This document shows, piece after piece, positions 1 through 29,932 of a stretch of 40,475 nucleotides of DNA. The DNA lies in the NCBI RefSeq assembly GCF_000383775.1, contig NZ_KB912586.1:135188-175662 (forward strand), read 5' to 3'. Source of the stretch: Saccharomonospora halophila 8. Lineage in GTDB: Bacteria > Actinomycetota > Actinomycetes > Mycobacteriales > Pseudonocardiaceae. The notes under the pieces were generated by a model that was not told where the DNA came from, searched no databases, and worked only from the letters and a program-made list of their open reading frames with translations. The first letter of the stretch is position 1, and each line of letters begins with the position of its first letter. The position numbers and the translations under genes are program-made.

Positions 1-208
1 CGGCGGCCGGCACCCGGCGGGCGGCGGCCAGCGCCTCACCCGGCCGCAGCAGCGCCTTGCTCGGCATGCACGCCCAGTAGGAGCACTGTCCACCGATCAG
101 TTCGTTTTCCACCACCACGGCGCTCAGTCCGTGCTCCCGGGCGTAGGCGGCCGCGTTCTCCCCGGTCGCCCCGCCTCCGAGCACGACCACGTCGTACTGC
201 TGCGCCAT
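1..208 (-). CDS. NAD(P)/FAD-dependent disulfide oxidoreductase, N-terminal fragment (runs off the left edge)
   Basis: The first 69 residues of a class I pyridine nucleotide-disulfide oxidoreductase (dihydrolipoamide dehydrogenase/mercuric reductase family) are visible. The protein opens with MAQQYDVVVLGGGATGENAA, the FAD-binding Rossmann motif GGGATG. It then has GGQCSYWACMPSKALLRP, whose CxxxxC pair (Cys42, Cys47) is the redox-active disulfide. The family transfers electrons between NAD(P)H and a disulfide through FAD. The ATG start at 208 is preceded by a GGGGAG ribosome site. The gene diverges from the DoxX operon across 286 bp. The substrate cannot be inferred because the C-terminal half is outside the window. 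Confidence 0.85.
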   Translation of the reverse strand, partial: MAQQYDVVVLGGGATGENAAAYAREHGLSAVVVENELIGGQCSYWACMPSKALLRPGEALAAARRVPAA

Positions 209-359
209 CTCGCTCCCCTCAATCGCCACCCCGCGTGCGTCGCGCGCGCATCCGGGACCACCGCGCACCCGTTCCGGTCGACGCTAGGCCCCGCTGCGAC
301 GACACGCACCTCACACGCACCCAGCGGTGCCCCGCGGACACGACTGCCCGCGGTTCGGG

Positions 360-418
360 CGTCCGCACGCCGACGATGCCCGGACGCGGGCACGCGGGAG
401 CCGAAAACCGTGCGGACG
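360..418. promoter_or_regulatory. 10-bp perfect inverted repeat between divergent genes
   Basis: The arms CGTCCGCACG (360-369) and CGTGCGGACG (409-418) are exact reverse complements separated by 39 nt. They lie in the 286-bp gap between the leftward oxidoreductase and the rightward DoxX operon, which otherwise shows nothing recognisable. Half-sites 49 bp apart could bind a regulator with looping. In DNA this GC-rich a 10-bp repeat could also arise by chance. Confidence 0.3.
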
Positions 419-494
419 TTCACTCCACCGTGGCATCCCGTTTGCGCCGGCACTCCGCGTCGACTTCCCTGAACGGCGTCGGGAGGGGCGTGAC

Positions 495-1028
495 ATGGCA
501 TCGGTGCCCGCCGCCGGCACGGCGGACGGTGGTTCGCGGACGACCCGTGGAGTCATGGCGTTCGTGCGGATCGGCGTCGCGTTCCTGTGGATCCAGAACG
601 CGGCGTGGAAGATCCCCCCGGACTTCGGCGAGCGCAGCGGCGGCGGCCTCTACCACTTCACCCGCTACGCCGTGGAGTATCCGGTCCTCGGACCGTTCGC
701 GTGGCTCGTGGAGCACGTCGTCCTGCCGAACTTCGTGCTGTTCGGTTGGCTCACGCTGCTCGTGGAGGCGGGCCTCGGCGCGTTCCTGCTGATCGGGTTG
801 GCGACCCGGTTGTGGGCCGTGCTGGGAATCGTCCAGTCCTCGGCCATCGCGCTGTCGGTACTGAATGCACCGAACGAGTGGCACTGGTCCTACTACCTGA
901 TGATCCTGGTGCATCTCGCGTTGTTCGCCACCGCCGCGGGGCGCGGCTTCGGTCTCGACGGTGTCCTCCGACCGATCATGGTCACCTCCCCGAATGCCGT
1001 CGCGCGTGGTCTGGCGAGGCTCGCATGA
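495..1028 (+). CDS. DoxX-family integral membrane protein
   Basis: This 177-residue protein has about four hydrophobic segments and the general pattern of the DoxX/DoxD family. An N-terminal helix contains FVRIGVAFLWIQNAAWKIPP, and a later WHWSYYLMILVHLALF segment follows. DoxD-type proteins are membrane subunits of thiosulfate:quinone oxidoreductases, and many DoxX relatives act with thiol or redox partners. The ATG at 495 is chosen because GGGAGGGG precedes it; upstream in-frame starts have no ribosome site and would add low-complexity sequence. The stop overlaps the next start (ATGA), so this is the first gene of a tightly coupled five-gene operon. Family placement is by pattern; no redox motif specific to a substrate is visible. 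Confidence 0.75.
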   Translation: MASVPAAGTADGGSRTTRGVMAFVRIGVAFLWIQNAAWKIPPDFGERSGGGLYHFTRYAVEYPVLGPFAWLVEHVVLPNFVLFGWLTLLVEAGLGAFLLIGLATRLWAVLGIVQSSAIALSVLNAPNEWHWSYYLMILVHLALFATAAGRGFGLDGVLRPIMVTSPNAVARGLARLA

Positions 1029-1399
1029 ACGGCGGAAGGCTCGACCGCGCCGCCGTCGCACTGGGTGTCGGCGGATTGCTGACCTTCGTGTTCACCTTCT
1101 CCGACGGCGCCTACCGCCCGTACGACTTCCTGCAGATACAGGGGGTCGGCCTCGTCGTGATCCTGGCGCTCAGCGCGCTGGGACTGCTCGGGGGCCTGCT
1201 GCGGAAACCGCTGCTCGTCCTCGCCTCCGGTGTCGCGTTCGCCGCGGCCGCGATCATCCAACTCGTGCAGGCCGGACGCTCACCGAACTGGCTCGAAGGC
1301 GACGGCTCGACCCTGTCCGTCCTGCTCGCGCTCGCGGCCGGGTTACTGGCCGTCGGGTTCGCTGCACGCCGAACCTCCCCGAACCGGAAGGAACAGTGA
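1025..1399 (+). CDS. Small integral membrane protein of unknown function
   Basis: This 124-residue protein appears to have four hydrophobic helices, with a short basic C-terminus (RRTSPNRKEQ). I do not recognise a family. It starts at an ATG overlapping the stop of the DoxX-like gene by 4 nt and ends 4 bp before the flavoprotein gene. Translational coupling and co-occurrence suggest it partners the DoxX-like protein in the membrane, perhaps as a small subunit of a redox complex. That role is inference from position only. Confidence 0.75.
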   Translation: MNGGRLDRAAVALGVGGLLTFVFTFSDGAYRPYDFLQIQGVGLVVILALSALGLLGGLLRKPLLVLASGVAFAAAAIIQLVQAGRSPNWLEGDGSTLSVLLALAAGLLAVGFAARRTSPNRKEQ

Positions 1400-1403
1400 A
1401 TCG

Positions 1404-2519
1404 ATGGACCTCACCTCCTGCCTCGACCCCGTGCTCGCCGCCGCCCGGGAAGCGGCGGCCGACGTGGACGCCACGGCACGGTTTCCCGACGAGGCCGTCA
1501 CCGAGCTTCGCCAGTCCGGCCTGCTCGGCCTCACTCTTCCGGAGAGCGCGGGCGGGCTCGGGCAGGGGCCGCGCGAGTTCGCCGAGGTGACCAGCGCGCT
1601 CGCCCGGGAGTGCGGGTCCACGGCGATGATCTATCTGATGCACGTCAGTGCCGCGATGCCGCTCGCCGCGGCGCCCCCGCCCGGCCTCGACGACCTCCTC
1701 CCGGAACTCGCCTCGGGCAAGACGCTCGCCTCGCTGGCGCTGTCCGAACCGGGCTCCCGTTCCCACTTCTGGGCACCGGTGTCGCAGGCCCACCGCGAGG
1801 GCGCGGAACTGCGGCTGCGCGCGACGAAGAGCTGGGTGACCACCGCCGGACACGCGGACGTCTACGTCGCGTCGACGCGGTCCCCGGACACCGACACGGT
1901 CGACTTCTTCGCGGTTCCCGCCGAGGCCCCGGGCGTCGACGTGACCGGCGAGTTCCGCGGGATGGGTCTGCGGGGCAACGCCTCGGCACCGATGTTCTTC
2001 GACGTCGAGGTGGCCGAGGGTCACCGGCTCGGCGGTGAGGGCGCCGGGTTCGACCTGATGATGCGGACGGTGCTGCCGTGGTTCAACCTCGGCAACGCCG
2101 CCGTCTCGGTCGGCCTGTGCGAGGCGGCCCTGCACACCGCGGTCGGGCACGTCGGCACGGCCACGCTCGAACACCGGAACGAGAGTCTGTCCGCGCTGCC
2201 CACCATCCGCGCACAACTGGCCCGGATGTCGCTCGACCTGGACAGCACCCGTGCCTACCTCGACCGCGCGGCCGGCCGTCTCGTCGACCCCCGCGACGAC
2301 ACCATGCTGCACGTCCTCGGGGTCAAGGCCGCCGCCAACGACGCGGCGCTGCGGATCACCGACGCGGCGATGCGGGTCTGCGGTGGTGCCGCGTTCTCCG
2401 AGCACCTGCGCATCGACCGCTACTTCCGCGACGCCCGCGCCGGGCACGTGATGGCCCCGACCGCGGACGCGCTCTACGACTTCTACGGCAAGGCCCTCAC
2501 CGGGCAACCGCTGTTCTGA
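1404..2519 (+). CDS. Acyl-CoA dehydrogenase-fold flavoprotein lacking the usual catalytic Glu motif
   Basis: This 371-residue protein spans the acyl-CoA dehydrogenase fold. It has an N-terminal helical domain with FPDEAVTELRQSGLLGLTLP, a middle beta domain around LALSEPGSRSHFW and KSWVTTAGHADVYV, and a C-terminal helical domain ending RIDRYFRDARAGHVMAPTAD. True dehydrogenases normally carry a GEGT-like catalytic Glu after RDAR. Here the stretch reads GHVMAPTAD, with no Glu. Flavin monooxygenases of the same fold (DszC/SfnC type) also lack this Glu, so oxygenase or atypical redox chemistry is possible. The ATG at 1404 begins 4 bp after the upstream gene; the next gene follows at 15 bp behind a strong GGAGGA site. 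Confidence 0.82.
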   Translation: MDLTSCLDPVLAAAREAAADVDATARFPDEAVTELRQSGLLGLTLPESAGGLGQGPREFAEVTSALARECGSTAMIYLMHVSAAMPLAAAPPPGLDDLLPELASGKTLASLALSEPGSRSHFWAPVSQAHREGAELRLRATKSWVTTAGHADVYVASTRSPDTDTVDFFAVPAEAPGVDVTGEFRGMGLRGNASAPMFFDVEVAEGHRLGGEGAGFDLMMRTVLPWFNLGNAAVSVGLCEAALHTAVGHVGTATLEHRNESLSALPTIRAQLARMSLDLDSTRAYLDRAAGRLVDPRDDTMLHVLGVKAAANDAALRITDAAMRVCGGAAFSEHLRIDRYFRDARAGHVMAPTADALYDFYGKALTGQPLF

Positions 2520-2534
2520 GGAGGAGGACGACCT

Positions 2535-3347
2535 GTGGACACACCACTGCTCGTCGGATCGGTCGCCTACACACCGAACGTGGTGACCATCTGGGAAGGA
2601 CTCCGGGACTACTTCGCGGAGGGTCCCGCCGAGATGGATTTCGTGCTGTTCTCCCACTACGGCAGGCAGGTCGAGGCCCTGCTGGACGGCACGATCGACA
2701 TCGCGTGGAACACCAACCTGGCATGGGTGCGCACCGTCGCCCGCACCGGCGGCGCCTGCCGCGCGCTGGCGATGCGCGACACGGACGCTGAGTTCCGCAC
2801 CGTGATCGTGGCCCGCACCGGCAGTGCGATCGAGGGGTTGCACGGACTCCGGGACCGGACACTCGCGCTCGGCTCGAAGGACTCGGCACAGGCCGCGATC
2901 CTGCCCGTCCATTTCCTCGACCAGGCCGGGGTCCGCGACGGCGAGGTGAAGCTGCTGCGCATCGACAGCGACGTGGGCAAGCACGGCGACACCGGGCGCA
3001 GCGAACTGGACGCGCTGCGCGCCGTGCTGGACGACCGGGCGGACGCCGCGGCCATCGGAATCAACACCTGGGAGGCGATCGGCCGCGAGGAATTGATGCC
3101 GGGGGCCTTCGAGGTGGTCTGGGAGTCACCGACGTACTCGCACTGCAACTTCACGGTGTTGCCACACGTGACCGAGGAGCGGGTACGCCCGTGGGTGGAG
3201 CAGCTGCTCGCGATGGACTGGAACGACCCGCGGCACCGGCCCATTCTGGAGATGGAGGGTCTGCGGCAGTGGGTCGAACCCCGGCTCGACGGGTACGACT
3301 CCCTGTTCGAGGCCGTCCGACGGCAGGGCATCCCGGAATGGTGGTGA
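2535..3347 (+). CDS. PhnD-like periplasmic-binding-fold protein without signal peptide
   Basis: This 270-residue protein resembles the substrate-binding proteins of phosphonate/phosphite (PhnD) or sulfonate ABC transporters. Typical patterns are LLVGSVAYTPNVVTIWEGLR at the N-terminus, LLDGTIDIAWNTNLAWV, then LRDRTLALGSKDSAQAAILP and DDRADAAAIGINTWEA. It has neither signal peptide nor lipobox, and no permease or ATPase gene is nearby. It therefore probably works in the cytoplasm, as an enzyme-like or ligand-sensing protein rather than a transporter part. The GTG start at 2535 follows GAGGAGGA with good spacing. Its end overlaps the radical SAM gene, so the two are co-translated. The ligand is unknown. 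Confidence 0.72.
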   Translation: MDTPLLVGSVAYTPNVVTIWEGLRDYFAEGPAEMDFVLFSHYGRQVEALLDGTIDIAWNTNLAWVRTVARTGGACRALAMRDTDAEFRTVIVARTGSAIEGLHGLRDRTLALGSKDSAQAAILPVHFLDQAGVRDGEVKLLRIDSDVGKHGDTGRSELDALRAVLDDRADAAAIGINTWEAIGREELMPGAFEVVWESPTYSHCNFTVLPHVTEERVRPWVEQLLAMDWNDPRHRPILEMEGLRQWVEPRLDGYDSLFEAVRRQGIPEWW

Positions 3348-4339
3348 GCCCCCTGGTCCTCGACCTGGTGCAACGCGTCTCCGCGGCGGCATCCGGGTCG
3401 ACGGTGGAAATTCCGCTGGGCAACCATCCCCCGGAAGGGGCGGACACCGTCCGGGCGTGGTGCGCCCGCACCGGCAACGAGCTGGTCGCGGTACGCGGCG
3501 ACGTGGCCGTGGTGCGCCGCGGCCGGGCACCCGACCCGTTCGCGGGACTCGCGCCGGAGCAGGTGCCCGGAACCCGGCTGTGGATGTACACCAACTTCGA
3601 CTGCAACCTGGCGTGTGACTACTGCTGCGCCCGTTCCGCACCGCGCACGCCGCGCCGCGCGCTGGGCCTCGACCGGGTACGCAGGCTCGCCGACGAGGCC
3701 GTCGACGCGGGCGTCGCCGAACTGCTGCTCACCGGCGGCGAGCCGATGCTGCTGCCGGACATCGACGAGCTCGTCGCCACGTGCACCACCGCGCTGCCCA
3801 CGACCCTGCTCACCAACGGGATGTTGTTCCGGGGGCGGCGGCTGGACGCGCTGCGCCGGATGGACCGGGACCGACTGGCGCTGCAGATCAGCCTGGACTC
3901 CGCCGATCCCGAACGGCACGACGCCCACCGCGGCCGGGGCTCGTGGGAACGCGCCGTGGCGGGGATCCGTCTCGCCCGTGCGGAAGGATTCCGGGTCCGG
4001 GTGGCCGCGACACTGCAACCCGAGCAGGCGCACGAAGGGGAACCGTTCCGCGAATTCCTCGACTCCCTGGACATCGCCCGCCACGACCAGGTGATCCGCC
4101 AGGTCGCCCGCCGTGGGCTCGCCGACACCGGCGTGGAGCTCACCGTCGACTCGCTGGTGCCCGAGGTCACGGTCACCAGCGACGGTGTCTACTGGCACCC
4201 GGTGGGCGCCGACCACGCCGACCAGCTGGTCACCCGCGACCTCTTCCCGTTGGCGACGGCCATCGCCGAGGTCCGCGGACGCTTCGCCGAGGACCGGGCA
4301 CGCGCCACGGCCGCGGCGCAGTGGTTCCCCTGCGCCTGA
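3338..4339 (+). CDS. Radical SAM enzyme with degenerate TusA-like N-terminal domain
   Basis: The radical SAM cluster motif is CNLACDYC (Cys89, Cys93, Cys96 of 333 residues), within WMYTNFDCNLACDYCCARS. The glycine-rich SAM loop LLTGGEPML and the core strands TTLLTNGM and LALQISLDSADPERHD follow, as in SPASM/MoaA-type enzymes. Residues 4-62 resemble the C-terminal two thirds of a TusA-like sulfur carrier, including TVRAWCARTGNELVAV. The first strand and CPxP Cys are absent, with SPL in the corresponding place. No multi-Cys SPASM tail is seen; the protein ends in WFPCA. The start may be ATG 3338 or the in-frame GTG 3344, which would give a GTGA overlap with the upstream stop. A substrate linked to sulfur is possible but unproven. 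Confidence 0.8.
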   Translation: MVVSPLVLDLVQRVSAAASGSTVEIPLGNHPPEGADTVRAWCARTGNELVAVRGDVAVVRRGRAPDPFAGLAPEQVPGTRLWMYTNFDCNLACDYCCARSAPRTPRRALGLDRVRRLADEAVDAGVAELLLTGGEPMLLPDIDELVATCTTALPTTLLTNGMLFRGRRLDALRRMDRDRLALQISLDSADPERHDAHRGRGSWERAVAGIRLARAEGFRVRVAATLQPEQAHEGEPFREFLDSLDIARHDQVIRQVARRGLADTGVELTVDSLVPEVTVTSDGVYWHPVGADHADQLVTRDLFPLATAIAEVRGRFAEDRARATAAAQWFPCA

Positions 4340-4361
4340 GGAGTGCGCACTCGCGGACAGG

Positions 4362-5177
4362 CTAGCCCGATGTCGTGATCAGGTCGTCGACCGCCGCGGC
4401 GATCCGGTCCGGATGATCCTCCGGTGTGAAATGCCGGCCGCCGTCGATGCGTTCCAGGGTCGTACCGAGGTCGTCGGCCAGTCGCTGTCCGTAGGAGACC
4501 TTCTGGAACCGATCCGCCTCGCCCCACACGACGCGCGCGGGCAGGCCGAGTTCGGGCAGTCGGTCGACGACCGCGAGGGTGTCCTCGACGTGCAACGCCG
4601 ACACCTGGCGCACGAGACTCCGGGCCGCACCGTGGGCGGCGTAGTGGCGCCAGTGAACGCCGATCGACTCCCCCGCCCGCGCCCGGTCGTCGTGTCCGCG
4701 ACGCAGAAGTGCCACGAACATCGGATAGAGCGCCACGTCGGGCGCGAACCGCAGCCCGGGCGCGAGACGTTGCATCATCATCACACTCGGGATCGGCCAG
4801 GAGTCGTAGCCGATGCTGTTGGTCAGGACGAGCCCCGTGACCCGCTCGGGCGCACGCGCGGCGAGGATCTGCGCGACCCCGCCGCCGAGGTCCTGGCCGA
4901 CGAGCACGGGACGCTCGATGCCCAGGTGACGGAGCCAGCTGTCGAGGTACGCGGCCTGCCGGGCGACCGAGATGTCCCGGTCCCGGCCGGCGGGGATGCT
5001 CTGGCCGTAGCCCACCATCTCCCACGCCAGACACCGGGCGCCGGTGACCCTCGGCAGCACGTGCCGCCACAACTCCGGTGAGGTCGGAATACCGTGCACG
5101 AACACGACCGGGGTCCCCTCGCCGTGCTCCAACCACCGCATGGTGATCGTGTCCACCACGTCCGTCCGTTCCCGCAC
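4362..5177 (-). CDS. Alpha/beta-hydrolase with Asp nucleophile (haloalkane dehalogenase/epoxide hydrolase class)
   Basis: This 271-residue alpha/beta-hydrolase has an oxyanion motif VFVHGIPTSPELWR (near residue 26) and a nucleophile elbow VGQDLGGG with Asp96. A likely acid lies in WGEADRFQKV, and the C-terminal catalytic His in GGRHFTPEDHPDRI. An Asp nucleophile is typical of haloalkane or haloacetate dehalogenases and epoxide hydrolases, not esterases. The Trp that follows Asp in classic haloalkane dehalogenases is Leu here, so the substrate is uncertain. The start is GTG 5177, preceded by GGAGGTGGTCCG; a longer upstream frame to 5303 would run into the iron box and lacks a ribosome site. 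It is convergent with the radical SAM gene 22 bp away. Confidence 0.8.
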   Translation of the reverse strand: MRERTDVVDTITMRWLEHGEGTPVVFVHGIPTSPELWRHVLPRVTGARCLAWEMVGYGQSIPAGRDRDISVARQAAYLDSWLRHLGIERPVLVGQDLGGGVAQILAARAPERVTGLVLTNSIGYDSWPIPSVMMMQRLAPGLRFAPDVALYPMFVALLRRGHDDRARAGESIGVHWRHYAAHGAARSLVRQVSALHVEDTLAVVDRLPELGLPARVVWGEADRFQKVSYGQRLADDLGTTLERIDGGRHFTPEDHPDRIAAAVDDLITTSG

Positions 5178-5290
5178 CGGACCACCTCCACGCCGTGGGT
5201 GCCCCGACGAGGGCAGGTCTACGCATGGTCCGGCCGCAGCGGACACGTCCTGATCCGGTGGTCCACGCCGCTCCGGTCTTGACCACAAGG

Positions 5291-5309
5291 TTTGGTTAGG
5301 CAATCCTAA
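5291..5309. promoter_or_regulatory. IdeR/DtxR-type iron box
   Basis: The 19 bp TTTGGTTAGGCAATCCTAA match 16 of 19 positions of the actinobacterial iron-box consensus TTAGGTTAGGCTAACCTAA. They lie four bases before the ATG of the siderophore-binding lipoprotein gene. Holo-IdeR/DtxR/DmdR binds such sites and blocks transcription when iron is plentiful, so the downstream gene should be iron-repressed. Confidence 0.85.
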
Positions 5310-5313
5310 TCAC

Positions 5314-6360
5314 ATGTCGCATGTTCCCACTTCACGGCGCCGCCCGGTGGTCTCCGCCCTGCTGGCCGCGTTCGCTCTCCTCACGGCCGCCTGTTCGAAC
5401 ACCCCGGAGGAGCGGGTGCGGGCGGAGCAGGCGGACCGTCCCACGGTGCGGCCGGAGCCCGGGGCACTCCCGGTGACCCTGGAACACCGCTACGGCTCGA
5501 CCACCATCGAACGGGCACCGCAGCGGGTGGTCACCGTCGGATACACCGACCAGGATGCGCTCATCGCTCTCGGGGTCGTCCCCGTGGCGACCACGCACTG
5601 GCTCGGCGACCATCCGGGCGCCCTCGGCCCCTGGGCTCAGGATGCCCTCGGCGAGGCGCCGACGCCCGAGGTCCTCCGCGACAGGAACGGCATCCGGTTC
5701 GAGAAGATCGCCGACCTCGACCCCGACCTCATCGTCGGGCTGTACTCGGCGATGTCGGCGGAGGACTACGCCAAACTCTCCCGGATCGCACCGACGGTGG
5801 CCCCACCGCGGGACCACGCCGACTACGGGATCCCCTGGCAGGAGCTCACCACGACGGTCGGCAAGGCGGTCGGCAAACCGGCCGAGGCGCGGCGGCTGGT
5901 CGCCGACGTCGAGGACCGTTTCGCGCGGAGCCGCCGGGAGCACCCCGAGTTCGACGGCGCGAGCGCGGTCGTGGCCGCTCCGCACGACGGCTACTTCGTC
6001 TACGGCCGCAGCGATCACCGGTCCCGGATCCTCACCGAGCTCGGCTTCTCGCTGCCTCCCGACCTCGACCGGGTCGTCGACAACGAATGGGGTGCGAACC
6101 TCAGTCGGGAGCGCGCCGACCTGCTCGACACCGACGTCATCGTCTGGCGGACCGGGGACGCGGGTGCACGGCTCCGGGAGGATCCGCTCTACAACGATCT
6201 GCCGGTGGCGCAGGAGAAACGGGAGGTCCTCGTCGACGAGACGGGCGATCACGGCGCCGCCTTCTCCCACGTGTCCGTGCTGAGCCTGCCGTACCTGCTC
6301 GACTGGCTCACACCCCGGCTGAGTGCCGCCGTCGACGGCGACCCGGCGACGATCGCGTGA
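5314..6360 (+). CDS. Iron-siderophore ABC transporter substrate-binding lipoprotein
   Basis: This 348-residue lipoprotein starts with a basic n-region, a hydrophobic stretch and lipobox LTAAC (about residue 27), so it should be anchored on the outer face of the membrane. The body is a class III (FecB/BtuF-like) binding protein. It has RAPQRVVTVGYTDQDALIAL near the N-terminus, KIADLDPDLIVG, and the linker-helix region ending before NEWGANLSRERADLL. It would deliver a ferric siderophore to an importer, but no permease or ATPase is adjacent. An iron box sits directly in front of the ATG. No ribosome site fits between them, so the mRNA may be leaderless. It is convergent with the cation exporter, sharing a hairpin. 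Confidence 0.9.
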   Translation: MSHVPTSRRRPVVSALLAAFALLTAACSNTPEERVRAEQADRPTVRPEPGALPVTLEHRYGSTTIERAPQRVVTVGYTDQDALIALGVVPVATTHWLGDHPGALGPWAQDALGEAPTPEVLRDRNGIRFEKIADLDPDLIVGLYSAMSAEDYAKLSRIAPTVAPPRDHADYGIPWQELTTTVGKAVGKPAEARRLVADVEDRFARSRREHPEFDGASAVVAAPHDGYFVYGRSDHRSRILTELGFSLPPDLDRVVDNEWGANLSRERADLLDTDVIVWRTGDAGARLREDPLYNDLPVAQEKREVLVDETGDHGAAFSHVSVLSLPYLLDWLTPRLSAAVDGDPATIA

Positions 6361-6403
6361 GGAACCGCCCCGCTGTCGGTGCGGGCGCACGGTCCCCAGC
6401 GGC

Positions 6404-6433
6404 AGCGGGACACCCGCCGTGGCGTGTCCTGCT
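6404..6433. terminator. Bidirectional terminator hairpin
   Basis: The arms AGCGGGACAC (6404-6413) and GTGTCCTGCT (6424-6433) form a 10-bp stem with one G-T wobble and a 10-nt loop. The hairpin sits between the convergent lipoprotein and CDF genes and touches the CDF stop codon. There is no T tract, as is common in high-GC actinomycete terminators. Confidence 0.55.
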
Positions 6434-7509
6434 CAGCGGTGGTGGGCGAGTTCGCGGTGGGCGGCCTCTGCGCCGGTGTCGGGCTCGGTGTGCACCACAG
6501 CGGCGCTGAGCCGGGGCACGGCGTGCACCAGGGCGTGTTCGACGGCGTGCGCGGTGGTGTGCGCCTGCTGCACCGTCCGGTCCGCGGGCACCGACACCGA
6601 CAGTTCCGCGCGCAGGCTGTGCCCGATCCAGCGCATCCGCACCGCGTCGACACCGGACACACCGTCCACCTCCACGGCGGCACGCTCGGCCGCCGACACG
6701 AGCGCGGGGTCGACCGCGTCCAGTAACCGGCCGCCGACCTCCCTGGCCGCGCCGTAGCCGACGAACGCGATCGCGACGGTGATGGCCAGCCCGATGAGCG
6801 GATCGGCCATCGGGAATCCCAACCCGACCCCGGCGGCGCCGCCGACCACGGCCAGCGAGGTGAAACCGTCGGCGCGGGCGTGCATCCCGTCGGCCACCAG
6901 CGCGGCCGAGCCGATCCGCCGACCCACCCGGACCCGCCAGCGGGCCACCAGTTCGTTGCCGGCGAAGCCGACCACCCCGGCGGCACCCACCGCCCAGAGA
7001 TAGGCGACCGGCTGCGGATCCGCCAGTCTGCGCACGGCCTCGTACCCGGCCAGCGCGGCGGAGGCCGCGATCAGCACCACCACGACGATCCCCGCCAGAT
7101 CCTCGGCACGCCCCAGCCCGTAGGTGAATCTGCGGGTCGCCACGCGCCGGCCCAGCAGCAGCGCGATGCCCACTGGCAGCGCGGTCAGCGCGTCGGCGAA
7201 GTTGTGGATGGTGTCCCCCAGCAGCGCGACGGAGGCGGTGACCGCCACGATGGCGGCCTGCGCGGCCGCCGTGACCATCAGCGCCACGAACGACCACACC
7301 AGCGTGCGGATCCCCAGCCGACTGGTCTCCAAGGCCGGGTCGAACCGGTCGGCCGTGTCGTGGCTGTGCGGGGTGACGGCGTGCCGCAGCCGGGCCCACA
7401 CTCCCGCCCCCGGCCCGTGGCCGTGGCCGTGGCCGTGGCCGTGGCCGTGGCCGTGGCCGTGGCCGTGGCCGTGGGGATGATCGTGGTCGTGGTCGTGCTG
7501 ATCAGCCAT
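6433..7509 (-). CDS. Cation diffusion facilitator (Zn2+/Co2+-type efflux transporter)
   Basis: This 358-residue CDF exporter begins MADQHDHDHDHPHG and continues into about ten His-Gly repeats, a cytosolic metal-binding tail. Transmembrane metal-site motifs are present: GDTIHNFADALTALPVGIAL on helix II and DGMHARADGFTSLAV on helix V, each with the HxxxD pair. A cytosolic C-terminal domain with HTTAHAVEHALVHAVPRL ends the protein. The family exchanges Zn2+ (or Co2+, Cd2+) for protons at the plasma membrane. ATG 7509 is chosen because the His-rich tail starts there. It diverges from an ArsR-type repressor across 79 bp, the usual arrangement for metal-inducible efflux. Confidence 0.93.
   Translation of the reverse strand: MADQHDHDHDHPHGHGHGHGHGHGHGHGHGHGPGAGVWARLRHAVTPHSHDTADRFDPALETSRLGIRTLVWSFVALMVTAAAQAAIVAVTASVALLGDTIHNFADALTALPVGIALLLGRRVATRRFTYGLGRAEDLAGIVVVVLIAASAALAGYEAVRRLADPQPVAYLWAVGAAGVVGFAGNELVARWRVRVGRRIGSAALVADGMHARADGFTSLAVVGGAAGVGLGFPMADPLIGLAITVAIAFVGYGAAREVGGRLLDAVDPALVSAAERAAVEVDGVSGVDAVRMRWIGHSLRAELSVSVPADRTVQQAHTTAHAVEHALVHAVPRLSAAVVHTEPDTGAEAAHRELAHHR
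7415..7474. repeat. Perfect hexanucleotide tandem repeat, (CCGTGG)x10
   Basis: Ten exact copies of CCGTGG encode the His-Gly repeat of the CDF protein on the minus strand. Because the unit is six bases, copy-number change by slippage keeps the reading frame and would only alter the length of the metal-binding tail. Confidence 0.95.
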
Positions 7510-7552
7510 GAAACCCTGCCCGCGTCTCTCTCCGGTCGGGGCGCCCGTCCAT

Positions 7553-7582
7553 TTGCGGCGCACCGCTGCGATCCGACAATAT
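7553..7582 (+). promoter_or_regulatory. Candidate promoter of the ArsR gene
   Basis: TTGCGG (7553-7558) and CAATAT (7577-7582) are spaced 18 bp. This places the expected transcription start at or next to ATG 7589, consistent with the absence of a ribosome site and a leaderless mRNA. The assignment is by eye. Confidence 0.4.
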
Positions 7583-7588
7583 GCAAAC

Positions 7589-7600
7589 ATGTGCGCACAT
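7589..7600. promoter_or_regulatory. Palindromic operator over the ArsR start codon
   Basis: ATGTGCGCACAT is a perfect 12-bp palindrome that includes the ArsR start codon and lies in the 79-bp divergent gap with the CDF gene. ArsR/SmtB repressors bind short AT-flanked palindromes of this size near their promoters, so this is the likely metal-relieved operator for both genes. Confidence 0.55.
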
Positions 7601-7948
7601 AACAACCGCTACGGGGCTCCGGCCGAGTACACCGACGAGCAGTACGGGGCGGCCGCGGAGGTGCTCGGCCTGCTGGCCGACCCCACCCGGTTGCGTCTGC
7701 TGCGACTGTTGGGCACCGAGCAGGACGTCACCACACTGACCGGGCAGGTGGGGGCCTCGCGCTCCTCGGTGTCCCAGCACCTCGGGCGACTGCGGCTGGC
7801 CGGCCTGGTCGAGGCACGGCGGGACGGGCGGCGCATGCTCTACCGCATCACCAGCGACCATCTCGCGAGCCTGGTCGACGAGGCGCTCGGCTACGCCCAC
7901 CACACCGTCCACGGCATCCCGCACCACCGGGACTCCGCACCACGCTGA
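7589..7948 (+). CDS. ArsR/SmtB-family metal-responsive repressor
   Basis: This 119-residue winged-helix repressor has the family core: VLGLLADPTRLRLLRLLGTE, recognition helix ASRSSVSQHLGRLRLAGLVE, and wing ARRDGRRMLYRI. The last helix, SDHLASLVDEALGYAHHTVH, with a His-rich tail (HGIPHH), resembles the alpha-5 zinc site of SmtB/CzrA-type sensors. One of the usual His positions is Tyr, so metal preference is uncertain. The family leaves DNA when metal binds. ATG 7589 is the best start: the conserved region begins soon after, a -10-like CAATAT ends seven bases upstream, and longer in-frame starts would overlap the CDF start. Pairing with the divergent CDF exporter indicates control of zinc or cobalt efflux. 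Confidence 0.9.
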   Translation: MCAHNNRYGAPAEYTDEQYGAAAEVLGLLADPTRLRLLRLLGTEQDVTTLTGQVGASRSSVSQHLGRLRLAGLVEARRDGRRMLYRITSDHLASLVDEALGYAHHTVHGIPHHRDSAPR

Positions 7949-8024
7949 CGCCACGTGCAGCGCCGGACCCGGACACCGGTTGCGCGGCAGGAGGTTGACG
8001 TCACGCCCGCCAGGAGACGAGTGT

Positions 8025-8768
8025 ATGCATTCCGACCACGACCGGCACCCTGGACCTCCTGCTGTGGGTCGTCGTCCCGTACGTGTCGATCGCGATCTTC
8101 GTCATCGGGCACGTGTGGCGCTACCGCTACGACAAGTTCGGCTGGACCACCCGCTCCTCCCAGCTCTACGAGAACCGGCTGCTGCGGCTTGGCAGCCACT
8201 GTTCCACTTCGGCATCCTGCTCGTCGCGGTCGGGCACGTCGGCGGCCTGCTCATCCCGAAGTCCTGGACCGCGGCGGTCGGCATCAGCGACACCGCCTAC
8301 CACGTCATGGCCGTCGCGGTCGGGGTCGTCGTCGGGTTCACCACCCTCGTCGGCGCCGCGATCCCGGTCTACCGGCGCCGCACCGTCGGGCCGGTGTTCT
8401 CGGCCACCACCCGCAACGACAAGGTCATGTACGTGCTGCTGCTCGGCACCATCGTGCTCGGCCTCGGCACGACCGTGTTCGGAAACCTCACGGAGAGCCC
8501 GCACGACTACCGCGAGACCGTGTCCCCGTGGTTCCGGTCGATCTTCTCCTTCCAGCCGGATCCGAAGCTGATGACCCGGGCCACCCTCGGCTTCCAGCTG
8601 CACGCCCTCGCCGCGTGGGCGCTATTCGCGTTCTGGCCGTCCAGCCGCCTGGTGCGCGTGTTCTCGATGCCGCTGGGCTACCTCATCCGGCCCTACGTCG
8701 TCTACCGCAGCCGCGACGCCGCCCGGGACAGCCGGATCGCACGGCGGGGCTGGGAACGGGTGCGATAA
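8025..8768 (+). pseudogene. narI: Decayed orphan narI (respiratory nitrate reductase gamma subunit)
   Basis: The reading frame from ATG 8025 (AGGAGA upstream) stays open to 8768, but residues up to about 57 are out of the NarI frame. The real N-terminal sequence (TTTGTLDLLLWVVVPYV, then HVWRYRYDKFGWTTRSSQLY) lies in another frame from about 8029 to 8196. The NarI frame resumes at PLFHFGILLVAVGHVGGLL. One extra base near 8028 and one missing C near 8196 explain this. NarI normally anchors NarGH in the membrane and carries two b hemes. The first two heme His are kept (FHFG and VGHV) and one in GFQLHAL, but the expected final His of LVHxx is Arg (RLVRVF). No narG, narH or narJ is present. Confidence 0.8.
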
Positions 8769-8866
8769 CCGGCGATCCGCGTCGCTGATATGGCGCCACC
8801 ATCATCGACACCCGTCGACGACCACCCGTGAGGACCATCGAACTCCGGTTCCCGAACGTCCACGTT

Positions 8867-10045
8867 TCACGACGGCAGCGCCTCGACCGCGTTGTTGATC
8901 CGGTCGATCATCACGTCCAGCACCGTTTCGGGCGTGGCGAAGTTCAACCGAACGAATCCCCGTCCCTGCGCACCGAACGAGGTTCCGTCGAACAGGAGAA
9001 CCCTGGCCTGTTCCCGGAAGTACGTCCACGGTGCATCGCCCACGCCGAGCTCCCGACAATCGAGCCATGCCAGGTACGTGGCGTCGGGCATCGCGAACCC
9101 GATCCGGGGCGAGAGATCCTGGCTCAAACGTTGCCGGTTACGGGCCAACCGGCCACGGATCTCGGTCAACCAGTCGTCCGAACCCGTCCAGGCCGCCTTG
9201 AGCGCCTCCACGGCGAGGACACCGACCTGACCGAAGAGCAGACCGTGCTGGGCATCCAGTGCCTTCCGGACAGCCCGTGCTCCCACATGGGCGACAGCAC
9301 ACCGGATCCCGGCGAGGTTGAACGCCTTGCTCCCGGAGGTCAACGTCACCGTCCGGTCCGCGACCTCGGCGCTCAACGAGGCGAACGGGATGTGTCGGTG
9401 TGGCTCGTACGTCAGCTCCGCGTGCACCTCGTCCGAGACCACGAGCAGACCGTGCCGACACGCGATCTCCGCCAAACGCTCGAGTTCCGTCCGCTCGTAG
9501 ACGTGTCCGGTCGGGTTGTGCGGGTTCACGAGGAACAGCACCCGGCATCCCTCGCGGAGGACTCTCGTCTCGATCTCGTCCAGGTCGGCGACCCACCGGT
9601 CACCCGCCCGCACCATCGGCACGGTCGTCGGGCGACGCCCGAGTCGGCTGATGACGTCGGTGAACGGCGGCGTCGCGGGCGTCTGCAGGAGCACCGCGTC
9701 TCCGGGCTGTGTGGCCACGTGCAGGGTCACACCGAGGGCGTGATTGATGTCGGTGAACAGGCGCACGTACTCCGCGACGGGTGAATGGCCGAAAAGCCGA
9801 CTGGTGCGCGCGGCGTAGATCTCGCCCAGTGGACCACCGTCACTCTGGTCGAACCACGCCGGATAACCCAGGTCGGTGGCCGAACGGCGGGAGAGCGCCT
9901 CCCGTACCGCCGGAGCCGGTGCGAAATCCATGTCCGCCACCCATGCCGACACCACTCCCTCGCCGACCCCGTGCCATTTCTCCCCGTCCCGTCGCGCCAG
10001 GTCCGGAATACCGGCCCAGCCGCTCTCCCGTTCACCGACAGCCAT
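8867..10045 (-). CDS. PatB/MalY-type PLP-dependent C-S lyase/aminotransferase
   Basis: This 392-residue fold-type I PLP enzyme has the MalY/PatB signature WVADMDFAPAPAVREAL near residue 35. It has FLVNPHNPTGHVY at 171-183, SDEVHAELTYEP at 204-215, and the Schiff-base lysine in SGSKAFNLAG (Lys240). Relatives cleave cystathionine or other Cys conjugates, giving pyruvate, ammonia and a thiol; a few aminotransfer or act in natural-product pathways. ATG 10045 is preceded by GGGGGTGGAG. It lies 115 bp downstream of the B12-type radical SAM gene on the same strand at the edge of the peptide cluster. A role in making or cleaving a non-standard amino acid is plausible but inferred; a housekeeping gene at the border is the alternative. 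Confidence 0.85.
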   Translation of the reverse strand: MAVGERESGWAGIPDLARRDGEKWHGVGEGVVSAWVADMDFAPAPAVREALSRRSATDLGYPAWFDQSDGGPLGEIYAARTSRLFGHSPVAEYVRLFTDINHALGVTLHVATQPGDAVLLQTPATPPFTDVISRLGRRPTTVPMVRAGDRWVADLDEIETRVLREGCRVLFLVNPHNPTGHVYERTELERLAEIACRHGLLVVSDEVHAELTYEPHRHIPFASLSAEVADRTVTLTSGSKAFNLAGIRCAVAHVGARAVRKALDAQHGLLFGQVGVLAVEALKAAWTGSDDWLTEIRGRLARNRQRLSQDLSPRIGFAMPDATYLAWLDCRELGVGDAPWTYFREQARVLLFDGTSFGAQGRGFVRLNFATPETVLDVMIDRINNAVEALPS

Positions 10046-10160
10046 GCTCCACCCCCGGACATCAACCTTTTCCGCACTCGTGCGGCGCTACCACGGAATC
10101 CCACCCGTCCACACGATCCCGGGCGCCACCGCGCATCCCCGAATCAACACGACGCAACGC

Positions 10161-12158
10161 TCAACCCGGCACTTCCCGCCCGCTCGTCGCGGGCGGGACC
10201 GAACCGAGTCCCGGGACCCGGTCTCCGGTTTCCGGTGACGTATCGTTACGCACACTCGACCACCGGTGTTCGGTCTCGCGGTGGATATGCCAGATGTCGT
10301 CCTCGCTCAGCGAGCGGGAGACGACGCCCGGAAACGCCTCCTCGAAATACGTGTAGGGTCGCCTGTTGTCCACTCGGGGTGAATGGTAATCGAGCTTGTC
10401 GTGCATGCCGTGCTTGCGCGTGATCGGCGTCGCCGGGTGATAGGTGAGGATGTTCGGACTGGCCAGGTCGATGAGACGATTGTCGATCAACTTACCGACC
10501 TCCTCGATCGTCTCGTCGATGCTGCCCCGGGTCTCGCCCTCCAGCCCGAACAGTACCGACGTACCGACCCGCAGGCCCTGATCCTTCACCAGAGACACGG
10601 CGTCACGCACCTTACCGGGCCAACTCCCGTCCCCGGTCTTACGGAGGTTCTTGTGCACATGCCCCATCACCTGCTCGGACATGCTCTCGACACCCACATA
10701 CACGTAGTTGCACCCTGCCTCCCGCATCCGGCGCAACACCTCCGCCGACTCCTGTCTGCGGTGGAGCGCGACCAGGGTGTCGACCGTCAACTGTGCCCCC
10801 CACTGGAGTCTTTTGAACCGGGCCATATCGGTCTCGTCCAGGAGTTCGCGATACCGTGCCGGCAGGGCCGCCCGCGCACACTCCCGGGCATCCCGGAGTT
10901 CGGTGCAGAACGAGATGATGTCGCTGAAGCGCCCACTCCAGAAGATCGAGTCGTCGAAGAATATTGATTCCGCACCGTAGCTGACGTACTCGCAGACCCG
11001 GTCCACTCCCCGGTGTACGGCGTCCCCCTTGAAGCGGTTCAATGTGTTCAGCAAGGACGATTCGGAGCAGAAATTGCACTGATAGGGACACGAGTTGGAC
11101 ATCATGAAGTGCGCGGTCCGGAGCGTTCGGCCGGTTTCCGGATCGGAAAAGATCGGAAAATGCGATCGGATGGCGAACGCCTCGTAGGGTGCGGGCAACG
11201 ACGCGAGATCCACCGAACTCCCGTCGAACGGGAACGCGTGCACGGTTCCGTCGGATCCCGAGGCGTCCGCCAGATAGATCGCCGACTTCCCTGCGGGCGG
11301 ACCGTCCCGGTGAAGCAGGTAACGCAACGCACCGACCGCCTCTTCCGCATCCACCCACCGTCCCGTCAGGTCCATGGACAGTGCCAGAGCCCGCATCAGT
11401 ACGTCCAGCGAGAAGTAGGCCTCGCCGGTGACCACGGCGTCGACCACCCGAGGTGCACGCCCGTCGGCCATGACGGCCAGCGTGCTGCTCGACCGTTGGA
11501 CGACCCTCGAACGGCCGGACACGACGCTGATCGTCTCGTCGACGTGCCGACCGCCCAGGACGACGAATGCCCGCGGCACCTCGGCCTTCACCAGCGTCGC
11601 GATCTCCAACGCGTACCGGTGAGCCGGTGACACGGCGCTGATGAGCACCACTCGCGGTCGCACCTCGCGGAGTAACTGGATCCACCGGGCTCTCGACATC
11701 TCGTCCCACACACGCGGATCGAACACCGTCTCGTCGGTGTTCGGATCCGTACGGTACGGCCGATAGCCGTCATCCTGAACACGCAGCCGGTATTCCTTCG
11801 ACGGATACCGTGTCCACTGTGGTGCAAGATCGTTGTAATGCCGCGCGTCGTTCAGCGGGCCGGCATCGGCGACCGCCCGATGCACGGCGACGCTCAACGC
11901 ACTGTACAAGCACATCGGATCACCGGGGTAGGTGATCTCTCCCTCTGTCTGCGTCATCACCGGAGCCAGGACGGACAGCACCGGGAAGTACCGCATCGAT
12001 TCACCTTCGACGGCGATCGTCTCGGCCAGTCGGTCCCTGCGCGATCGGAGTACTCCGGCCGAGTAAGCCGCGTCGCGAACCGTGTCGGCGTGCGTCGTGT
12101 CGTGCACACGCATCTCCGGCGTTTCGAAGCAGTTCTCGTCCGTCCCAAGCGCACCCAT
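10161..12158 (-). CDS. B12-binding-type radical SAM enzyme
   Basis: This is a 665-residue protein. The N-terminal part (about 60-260) resembles cobalamin-binding radical SAM proteins, with RPRVVLISAVSPAHRYALEIA, AFVVLGGRHVDE and DAVVTGEAY. No DxHxxG His ligand is seen, so binding would be base-off without lower His. The radical SAM motif is SCPYQCNFCSESS (Cys357, Cys361, Cys364), followed by AESIFFDDSIFW, NYVYVGVESMSEQVM and GTSVLFGLEGETRGS. Such enzymes often methylate unactivated carbons or build rings in natural products. ATG 12158 is chosen because GGGAGG precedes it; the longer start at 12185 has no such site. Its position among the cluster genes suggests precursor or peptide tailoring; the reaction is unknown. 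Confidence 0.85.
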   Translation of the reverse strand: MGALGTDENCFETPEMRVHDTTHADTVRDAAYSAGVLRSRRDRLAETIAVEGESMRYFPVLSVLAPVMTQTEGEITYPGDPMCLYSALSVAVHRAVADAGPLNDARHYNDLAPQWTRYPSKEYRLRVQDDGYRPYRTDPNTDETVFDPRVWDEMSRARWIQLLREVRPRVVLISAVSPAHRYALEIATLVKAEVPRAFVVLGGRHVDETISVVSGRSRVVQRSSSTLAVMADGRAPRVVDAVVTGEAYFSLDVLMRALALSMDLTGRWVDAEEAVGALRYLLHRDGPPAGKSAIYLADASGSDGTVHAFPFDGSSVDLASLPAPYEAFAIRSHFPIFSDPETGRTLRTAHFMMSNSCPYQCNFCSESSLLNTLNRFKGDAVHRGVDRVCEYVSYGAESIFFDDSIFWSGRFSDIISFCTELRDARECARAALPARYRELLDETDMARFKRLQWGAQLTVDTLVALHRRQESAEVLRRMREAGCNYVYVGVESMSEQVMGHVHKNLRKTGDGSWPGKVRDAVSLVKDQGLRVGTSVLFGLEGETRGSIDETIEEVGKLIDNRLIDLASPNILTYHPATPITRKHGMHDKLDYHSPRVDNRRPYTYFEEAFPGVVSRSLSEDDIWHIHRETEHRWSSVRNDTSPETGDRVPGLGSVPPATSGREVPG

Positions 12159-29637: not shown

Positions 29638-29856
29638 TCAGTCGGTCCCGTTCTCCGCCATCCTTCGGCGCAGACTGAGCGGACGCATGTCGGTCCACAC
29701 TTCCTCGATATGGGCCAGGCAGACGTTCTTGGTCCCCTCGACACCGTCCTTGCGCCACCCCGCGGGCAGCTCCCTGTCGGCGAACCAGATCGAATACTGT
29801 TCCTCGTCGTTCAGCACGACGCAGTAGGTGCGGTCGTCGGAAGTCTCGTCGGACAT
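29638..29856 (-). CDS. MbtH-like NRPS accessory protein
   Basis: This 72-residue protein has the full MbtH signature: [38 protein letters not shown] and [10 protein letters not shown]. The first motif has Phe where Pro is usual after SxW. MbtH proteins bind adenylation domains and are often needed for their solubility and activity. It lies 76 bp after NRPS-A and 75 bp before NRPS-B in the same operon, so it likely serves all six A domains. ATG 29856 is preceded by AAAGGAA. One copy is visible. Confidence 0.97.
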
Positions 29857-29932
29857 CACAGATTCCTTTCCCTGCACGTGGACGGAGCGGGCGGCCCCCA
29901 CTCGGTCGTTCGCGTATTCACTTTCCCGTTGT

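What the first reader, a model, noticed from the sequence alone, without database searches (positions are those of the whole stretch)
495..4339. Unassigned DoxX / flavoprotein / PhnD-like / radical SAM operon
Five genes are coupled by overlaps or gaps of 4-15 bp. A DoxX-like membrane protein, a small membrane protein, an acyl-CoA-dehydrogenase-fold protein without the catalytic Glu, a binding-fold protein with no signal peptide or ABC partners, and a radical SAM enzyme with a TusA-like remnant are an unusual set. DoxX and TusA likeness hint at sulfur or thiol chemistry, and a disulfide oxidoreductase diverges from it. I know no described system with this composition.
Basis: partly seen in the sequence, partly recalled or inferred. 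Interest (0 to 1): 0.7.

Follow-up and report, generated by a model that had tools for sequence, protein, structure and literature searches.

The report
Radical-SAM operon linked to thiosugar capping
This five-gene set is a real, widely conserved bacterial module of unknown function, also found in mycobacteria, and its genes often sit near genes that put an unusual sulfur-containing sugar on the cell surface, which suggests a job that can now be tested.

Summary
In detail: five intact, tightly coupled genes (495-4339). It is not chance clustering. Four of the five pass NCBIfam cut-offs for families named after M. tuberculosis Rv1678 (C-terminal part), Rv1679, Rv1680 and Rv1681. In 60 of 60 well-flanked loci, from at least four phyla, the binding-fold gene lies within 1.5 kb of the radical SAM gene. 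The papers I could see gave no function. The new result is linkage: the module often lies near methylthioxylose (MTX)-type genes. TIGR04282 relatives occur in 9 of 10 module-bearing class genomes against 121 of 286 others, and within 20 kb of the module in 5 of 8 assessable ones. A sister module has a TusA-AurF-like (diiron) fusion instead of the radical SAM enzyme; one copy adjoins a selenoprotein gene. The binding-fold protein keeps a PhnD-like fold with a conserved His-Asp/His-Cys set, so it may be a cytoplasmic enzyme. Best reading: an accessory that makes or varies the 5-position heteroatom of an MTX-type pentofuranose. The linkage is well supported; the chemistry is inferred. MTX-type genes were not found in this window's incomplete genome; four of five kinds were found, partly broken, in its nearest relative.

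The parts
495..1028 (+). DoxX/DoxD-like membrane protein, N-terminal half of the Rv1678 type (fused to the next gene in mycobacteria)
   Evidence: PF04173 28.3 bits over cut-off 22.7; fused 302-307 aa form seen in L056; W38-K39 invariant and P41-P42, F44-G45 nearly so in 55 sequences
1025..1399 (+). small membrane protein, Rv1678 C-terminal family
   Evidence: NF049986 104.9 bits, cut-off 50
1404..2519 (+). FadE16 (Rv1679-type) acyl-CoA-dehydrogenase-fold flavoprotein lacking the catalytic Glu
   Evidence: NF049984 650.9 bits, cut-off 600; MAPT in place of the Glu; not found over the cut-off in 3 genomes that keep the rest
2535..3347 (+). Rv1680-type cytoplasmic PhnD-fold protein with conserved H150, D152, H203, C204
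   Evidence: NF049985 500.4 bits, cut-off 400; model pLDDT 93.5; nearest solved folds PhnD1, PtxB, ArrX, AioX; motif shift against transporter types
3338..4339 (+). Rv1681-type radical SAM enzyme with N-terminal TusA-like domain (about residues 1-60) and conserved C-terminal Cys (the calls used the GTG at 3341)
   Evidence: NF049973 535 bits, cut-off 380; C88/C92/C95 invariant in 69 of 69; hhalign to TusA set 97.3%

Best explanation
The five genes are one functional module, the Rv1678-Rv1681 type. It most likely acts as an accessory of an MTX-type pathway, which puts a 5-deoxy-5-heteroatom pentofuranose on an envelope glycan by way of a polyprenyl-phosphate donor. Shown here: the module's conservation; its repeated neighbourhood with MTA-phosphorylase-like, NAD-epimerase-like, CofC-like TIGR04282, MtxS-like GT2 and MtxT-like membrane genes; the folds; the derived His-Asp/His-Cys set of the binding-fold protein; the TusA-like domain. 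Inferred: a small sulfur- or selenium-type oxyanion or a derived species is bound and processed by the Rv1680-type protein, often with FadE16 as flavin redox partner. The TusA-radical SAM enzyme uses it, by 5'-deoxyadenosyl radical chemistry, to make or alter the 5'-substituent of a deoxyadenosine or pentose. The phosphorylase, TIGR04282 protein, epimerase and glycosyltransferases then turn this into the lipid-linked sugar. DoxX/Rv1678 would be the membrane redox or transport partner.
For: Same-genome co-occurrence: in 296 class genomes the radical SAM and binding-fold families are found in the same 10. TIGR04282 relatives (model A4) are in 9 of these 10 against 121 of 286 others, Fisher p 0.006. 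They lie within 20 kb of the module in 5 of 8 assessable genomes; simple null P 1.8e-9. L113 and L091 hold relatives of MTA phosphorylase, GT2, TIGR04282, the MtxT-like membrane protein and the epimerase with the module in one block, the small membrane gene being assigned by position. 18 of 72 radical-SAM loci examined have TIGR04282 and 13 have GT2 in the fetched flanks, across Actinomycetota, Acidobacteriota, Gemmatimonadota, Verrucomicrobiota and Ktedonobacterales. In M. gastri the neighbour genes lie between a UbiA-family gene (MenA-like) and an AMP-binding-enzyme gene (MenE-like), the order recalled for Rv0533c-Rv0542c, about 14-20 kb from the module. MtxS = Rv0539 and MtxT = Rv0541c are from a figure legend of PMC8780516. 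The phosphorylase of L095 scores 299.7 bits against an MTA phosphorylase cut-off of 306.
Against: The window's own assembly (83% complete) shows no TIGR04282, MtxT-like or epimerase relative and only a weak GT2; S. iraqiensis shows only the epimerase. 121 of 130 TIGR04282-bearing class genomes lack the module, so the MTX-type pathway does not need it. MTX can in principle be made from ordinary MTA, so no missing step is proven. The MtxT-like proteins have no Pfam hit (2 scanned) and are named by position and mutual similarity. The sister TusA-AurF-like modules are not beside MTX-type genes in the four loci read, and all four genomes carry SelD, which favours a selenium reading. FadE16 is dispensable in three genomes. 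No chemistry was tested.
Confidence: 0.4

Rival explanations
1. A selenium (or sulfur/selenium) oxyanion module: the Rv1680-type protein traps selenite or a like oxyanion and the TusA-fused enzyme passes Se or S into a small molecule or cofactor, independently of MTX.
For: Among NCBIfam families the closest after its own is TIGR04553 'putative selenate' binding protein (94 bits, cut-off 250). In L083 a TIGR04553 protein (307 bits, over cut-off) with ABC genes shares an operon with a related radical SAM enzyme and DoxX/Rv1678. In L089 a similar protein lies beside a SelB, SelD (place agrees), and SelA- and FdhA-like genes named by eye. In L087 the sister module is followed by a class-V aminotransferase (NifS type by recall), a molybdopterin oxidoreductase with one in-frame TGA, and SelA. 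SelD over cut-off in 6 of 10 module genomes vs 75 of 286 others (p 0.028), and in 10 of 14 with either module type vs 71 of 282 (p 6e-4).
Against: 4 of 10 module genomes have no SelD over the cut-off; the linkage to MTX-type genes is left unexplained; the selenate name of TIGR04553 is itself hypothetical; the P values are post hoc and ignore phylogeny.
Confidence: 0.22
2. A tailoring step on the finished or lipid-linked thiosugar, for example FadE16 as a group-D-type flavin monooxygenase making the sulfoxide MSX from MTX.
For: FadE16 lacks the dehydrogenase Glu and scores with SfnB, DszC and HsaA besides dehydrogenases, all far below cut-offs; MSX exists beside MTX in M. tuberculosis LAM (PMC8531672, passages).
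Against: FadE16 is not found over the cut-off in three genomes that keep the radical SAM and binding-fold genes; a FadE16-like gene also occurs in sister modules not beside MTX-type genes; sulfoxide can form without an enzyme (general chemistry).
Confidence: 0.12
3. A molybdenum cofactor or MoeX-type function, as the name moeX of Rv1681 suggests.
For: Radical SAM core resembles MoaA (71.9 bits; structural Z 17.6). A MoeA gene lies near the MTX-type genes of S. paurometabolica in L121, though not near its module.
Against: MoaA cut-off is 284 bits; many other radical SAM families score alike. Molybdenum-cofactor genes beside the module were not searched for.
Confidence: 0.03
4. A phosphonate or other phosphorus-oxyanion use pathway.
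For: PhnD-like fold; top solved matches bind phosphate, phosphite and methylphosphonate.
Against: The S-T-S-G loop of transporter types is replaced by S-A-Q-A and a His-Asp/His-Cys set appears. C-P lyase or phosphonate genes nearby were not searched for.
Confidence: 0.08

Closest known systems
Rv1678-Rv1681 (fadE16, moeX) genes of M. tuberculosis, as NCBIfam families NF049986, NF049984, NF049985, NF049973
   Same: Same families, all four models over cut-off; same order in mycobacterial loci L046, L054-L056, L059, L060, L062, L063
   Different: Rv1678 type is one fused gene in mycobacteria, two genes here; no assigned function in the papers seen; the M. tuberculosis genome itself was not compared
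MTX capping pathway of mycobacterial LAM (MtxS Rv0539, MtxT Rv0541c)
   Same: Frequent physical neighbour; enzymes handle a 5-methylthio pentofuranose, probably derived from MTA
   Different: None of the five genes is a described MTX enzyme in what I saw; TIGR04282 relatives occur without the module in 121 of 130 class genomes
Arsenosugar synthesis (ArsS radical SAM; NCBIfam names TIGR04282/TIGR04283 for it)
   Same: Radical SAM enzyme associated with the TIGR04282 family; adenosylation of arsenic by a radical SAM enzyme (review PMC12159101, passages)
   Different: The related L083 protein is not ArsS by score (49.5 vs 300 bits); arsenic genes beside the module were not searched for
PhnD1/PtxB/AioX/ArrX oxyanion-binding proteins
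   Same: Fold (Foldseek E 3e-24 to 4e-16)
   Different: No signal peptide by eye, no ABC partner, derived loop and conserved His-Cys
TusA-AurF-like sister module (L085-L088)
   Same: FadE16-like (42-48%) and Rv1680-like (39-42%) pair plus a TusA-like domain
   Different: AurF-like (diiron) domain instead of radical SAM, over the Pfam cut-off in 1 of 4 and under it in 3; one copy beside a selenoprotein gene

Membership tests
Rv1681 family radical SAM (NF049973) | score over 380 bits, CxxxCxxC | tested here: met
   535 bits; motif invariant in 69 of 69
Rv1680 family SBP-like (NF049985) | score over 400 bits | tested here: met
   500.4 bits
Rv1679 FadE16 (NF049984) | score over 600 bits | tested here: met
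   650.9 bits
Rv1678 C-terminal family (NF049986) | score over 50 bits | tested here: met
   104.9 bits
True acyl-CoA dehydrogenase | catalytic Glu at the YEGT position | tested here: not met
   Ala in MAPT, aligned to 5ol2
ABC phosphonate/selenate binding protein | signal peptide, ABC partners, TIGR04553 over 250 bits | tested here: not met
   94 bits; no ABC genes directly adjacent; no N-terminal signal by eye
MoaA (TIGR02666) | score over 284 bits | tested here: not met
   71.9 bits
Thiosulfate:quinone oxidoreductase DoxD (NF041179) | score over 300 bits | tested here: not met
   22.2 bits
TusA | profile similarity of the N-terminal domain | tested here: met
   hhalign 97.3%, E 2.4e-11; no Pfam hit for the window protein alone
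TusA | first (catalytic) Cys of the carrier | tested here: not met
   absent in the window protein; a Cys is there in the L083 and L084 relatives; the catalytic role is recalled
ArsS (TIGR04167) | score over 300 bits | tested here: inconclusive
   not among the 25 of 67 families shown for the window protein; 49.5 bits for the L083 relative
MTX pathway | MtxS, MtxT, MTA phosphorylase, epimerase genes in the same genome | tested here: inconclusive
   TIGR04282 relative in 9 of 10 module genomes, not in own 83% complete assembly; GT2, TIGR04282, MtxT-like and epimerase pieces in S. paurometabolica
MTX pathway | thiosugar product | not testable with these tools
   needs glycan analysis

The most novel reading that the evidence does not exclude
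The module is a new radical route to 5'-heteroatom nucleosides. The TusA-radical SAM enzyme joins its own 5'-deoxyadenosyl radical to a sulfur- or selenium-type species supplied by the enzyme-like PhnD-fold protein, as ArsS does for arsenic. The product enters the MTX-type machinery and yields surface thio- or selenosugars of a kind not yet described, in soil actinobacteria and in mycobacteria.
Probability: 0.17. Interest if true: 0.88.

Novelty: new variant of a known kind. Interest (0 to 1): 0.62.

Why it matters
Four gene families carried by mycobacteria and by bacteria of at least three other phyla (partly known from MAGs only) have had names but no job. The linkage gives them a concrete, testable place: the 5-substituted pentofuranose caps of envelope glycans, whose best-known case (MTX/MSX on LAM) is a diagnostic antigen for tuberculosis. 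It also points to a periplasmic-binding fold that may have become a cytoplasmic enzyme with a His-Asp/His-Cys set, and to a TusA-like domain fused in one branch to a radical SAM enzyme and in another to an AurF-like (diiron) domain.

Tried and rejected
Chance clustering: rejected. The divergent pyridine-nucleotide oxidoreductase as a module part: rejected, not recurrent. Known RNA upstream: one sub-threshold hit far from the operon in window 1-12000. MoeX/MoaA: rejected on score. In-frame TGA reported in four GT2 hits: considered as selenocysteine and dropped, because the predicted genes of L096-L098 end at 218-220 aa and the match ran past the stop; L099 was not looked at closely. Literature searches: Rv1681; Rv1676-Rv1680 pairs; selenodomain/TIGR04282/TIGR04283; moeX; MTX with LAM and Rv0541c; Rv0535-Rv0540 pairs; MTX names; arsenosugar/ArsS; fadE16/moeX pairs: no function for the module seen. 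What I saw: passages of PMC5499769, PMC3229680, PMC8780516, PMC8531672, PMC11127046, PMC5017210 and PMC12159101; other papers in search listings only. Angala 2017 and Chim 2010 are not held and are known second-hand. The gene finder for most neighbour loci is my own GC-frame heuristic; the clades are my own grouping. Names given by eye or recall: MenA, MenE, FabH, NifS, FdhA, GT-C/MtxT-like. Pfam agrees in part: UbiA family, AMP-binding enzyme, class-V aminotransferase, molybdopterin oxidoreductase, and no hit for two MtxT-like proteins. The order Rv0533c-Rv0542c is recalled. The fold list for the radical SAM model spans residues 64-332; the N-terminal domain was not searched alone. Promoter or DNA motif comparison was not done.
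Full report
WHAT IS THERE. The window lies in an assembly of 3.69 Mb in 116 contigs, 83% complete. Its closest relatives by the radical SAM protein are Saccharomonospora paurometabolica and S. iraqiensis (96 and 93% identity). Five intact genes run 495-4339 with 4-nt, 4-nt, 15-nt and 7-10-nt junctions. They are a DoxX/DoxD-like membrane protein, the Rv1678 C-terminal membrane family, Rv1679 FadE16, Rv1680 SBP-like and Rv1681 radical SAM. The last four are over NCBIfam cut-offs and the first is over the Pfam DoxD cut-off. In mycobacterial relatives the first two genes are one fused gene.

CONSERVATION. A scan with the radical SAM protein returned 78 loci. In 60 of them there are at least 3.5 kb on both sides. 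There the binding-fold gene is within 1.5 kb in 60 (within 100 nt in 57), FadE16 within 5 kb in 56 and DoxX within 5 kb in 50. An earlier count through my ORF extraction gave 57, 57, 52 and 47, and a 7-nt overlap as the commonest junction of binding-fold and radical SAM genes. In nine loci of Acidobacteriota, Verrucomicrobiota, Gemmatimonadota and an alphaproteobacterial MAG the binding-fold and FadE16 genes lie on the opposite strand to the radical SAM gene, yet close by. FadE16 is missing in L022, L048, L052 and L077 and in L014, which has a short flank. The genomes of L022, L048 and L014 have no FadE16 over the cut-off; L052 and L077 were not followed up. So binding-fold protein plus radical SAM enzyme is the constant pair. 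In 296 genomes of the class both families are found in the same 10: the radical SAM family over its cut-off in all 10, the binding-fold family over its cut-off in 9 and split over two frames in the tenth. Two more genomes (G166, G069) hold radical SAM relatives just under the cut-off.

THE PARTS. Radical SAM enzyme: C88/C92/C95 are invariant in 69 of 69; C96 (68), C41 (67) and C331 (66) are nearly so. Its N-terminal domain matches TusA-like domains as a profile. The window protein lacks the first Cys of TusA, but relatives in L083 and L084 have a Cys there. The structural model (pLDDT 86.9) resembles SkfB, BlsE, SuiB, viperin and MoaA at Z 17-19, which does not settle the reaction. Binding-fold protein: model pLDDT 93.5. 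Nearest solved folds are PhnD1 with phosphate, phosphite or methylphosphonate, PtxB, ArrX with arsenate, AioX with arsenite and HtxB with hypophosphite, all small-oxyanion binders. D152, H203 and C204 are invariant in 70 of 70 and H150 is kept in 69 of 70. The same residues are kept in the four sister proteins of L085-L088 but not in the transporter-type proteins of L083 and L089, which instead keep the S-T-S-G loop. I infer a changed ligand or a catalytic role. FadE16: MAPT replaces the Glu-bearing motif.

THE NEIGHBOURHOOD. Clustering of flanking genes across 20 clades of my own grouping showed recurrent TIGR04282 (DUF2064, CofC-like) and GT2 genes, then NAD-epimerases and two-component genes. 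A direct count in 72 of the 78 loci found TIGR04282 in 18, GT2 in 13, epimerase in 5 and the MtxT-like membrane protein in 5 within the fetched flanks. These include Acidobacteriota L067/L068, Gemmatimonadota L071 (next gene, divergent), Verrucomicrobiota L072 and Ktedonobacterales L075. L075 holds a more distant radical SAM relative (44%) without binding-fold or FadE16 genes on its short contig. Of five TIGR04282 proteins scored singly, two passed that family's cut-off (L071, L075); L022, L035 and L096 fell short, 115-125 against 134 bits.

THE MTX LINK. G019, G043 and G082 have the TIGR04282 gene 14.5, 4.1 and 18 kb away. In G200, G195 and G209 it lies on another contig, and in G007 the contig is too short to tell. 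In M. gastri the GT2, TIGR04282, MtxT-like, epimerase and MTA-phosphorylase-like genes lie between a UbiA-family gene and an AMP-binding-enzyme gene, which I take for MenA and MenE, as recalled for Rv0533c-Rv0542c. They are on what I infer to be the same contig as the module, 14-20 kb away (contig length 137,103 in both). MtxS (Rv0539) makes the polyprenyl-phosphate MTX donor and MtxT (Rv0541c) transfers MTX to LAM, according to a figure legend citing Angala 2017 (PMC8780516). MTX and its sulfoxide MSX were seen in the LAM preparations of PMC8531672 (passages). TIGR04282 relatives occur in 130 of 296 class genomes, and in 9 of the 10 with the module; Fisher p 0.006. A null of random placement (40 kb in 5 Mb) gives 1.8e-9 for 5 of 8 within 20 kb. 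Both numbers are post hoc and ignore relatedness. In a further 16 genomes with the module, chosen by hand, 15 have a TIGR04282 relative, but some of these hits are weak and may not be MTX-type, and four of the loci had one in the flank already.

AGAINST, FOR THIS WINDOW. The window's own assembly has no TIGR04282, MtxT-like or epimerase relative at the thresholds used and only a weak GT2. S. paurometabolica has GT2, TIGR04282 and MtxT-like pieces together in a stretch with 600 N and broken order, and an epimerase on another contig; MTA phosphorylase was looked for only in that stretch and not found. S. iraqiensis shows only the epimerase (GT2 was not searched there). Loss in assembly gaps is possible but not shown.

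THE SISTER MODULES. G046, G277, G163 and G275 (L085-L088) carry FadE16-like and Rv1680-like genes followed by a TusA-like domain fused to an AurF-like (diiron) domain. AurF is over the Pfam cut-off in L088 and under it in the other three; TusA is under it in all four. All four genomes have SelD. In L087 a class-V aminotransferase, a molybdopterin oxidoreductase with one in-frame TGA, and SelA follow. In L083 a related radical SAM enzyme and DoxX/Rv1678 share an operon with a TIGR04553 'putative selenate' binding protein and ABC genes. In L084 a related radical SAM enzyme follows DoxX, TusA and DsrE genes. SelD is over its cut-off in 6 of 10 core genomes against 75 of 286 others (p 0.028). This supports a sulfur/selenium oxyanion theme, but four core genomes lack SelD, so selenium by the SelD route is not obligatory.

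VERDICT. Real, conserved, functionally unassigned in the papers I could see, and genomically tied to MTX-type thiosugar genes. The proposed chemistry is inference. My probabilities: one conserved module, near certain; functional tie to the MTX-type pathway, about 0.7; the stated mechanism as a whole, 0.40; the adduct-forming radical chemistry of the novel case, 0.17.

Noticed in passing
window 14227-36316: NRPS genes (2544, 1599 and 2127 aa; the first scanned: three Condensation and two AMP-binding stretches; the others by eye) with an MbtH-like protein at 29638-29901 and a hydroxylase similar to GntD and clavaminate synthase (195 and 193 bits, below cut-offs): an unidentified peptide cluster.
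   Followed up: partly
window 10161-12158: A second radical SAM protein, B12-binding type, weakly like TIGR04434 and PhpK, about 6 kb from the operon.
   Followed up: no
window 6433-7948: His-rich cation diffusion facilitator divergent from an ArsR/SmtB-type metalloregulator.
   Followed up: partly
window 7980-8768: NarI-like subunit (TIGR00351 over its cut-off); no other nar gene was noticed among the neighbours, which were not all scanned.
   Followed up: no
L085:8743-9918, L086:8101-9330, L087:10911-12116, L088:8627-9817: TusA-like domain fused to an AurF-like diiron domain, next to FadE16-like and Rv1680-like genes in all four: an apparent oxygen-using counterpart of the radical SAM module, in SelD-bearing genomes.
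   Followed up: partly
L087:13421-16759: Molybdopterin oxidoreductase (formate dehydrogenase alpha type by recall) with a single in-frame TGA at ARI-U-HSATV, 1.3 kb after the sister module.
   Followed up: yes
L084:5921-12000: DoxX, TusA, DsrE and Rv1681-like radical SAM genes near a Tes/TrsS-like radical SAM gene and a methyltransferase like the DVU_1556 family (both below cut-offs).
   Followed up: no
L094, L097, L099: In these MTX-type clusters the TIGR04282 gene is followed by a methyltransferase-like gene (36.6 bits to NF045667 in L094; the others by eye) and in two by a membrane protein of unknown kind.
   Followed up: no
L121:8800-15400: S. paurometabolica scaffold with MTX-type genes split and out of order around runs of N, probably a scaffolding error; a MoeA gene is nearby.
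   Followed up: partly
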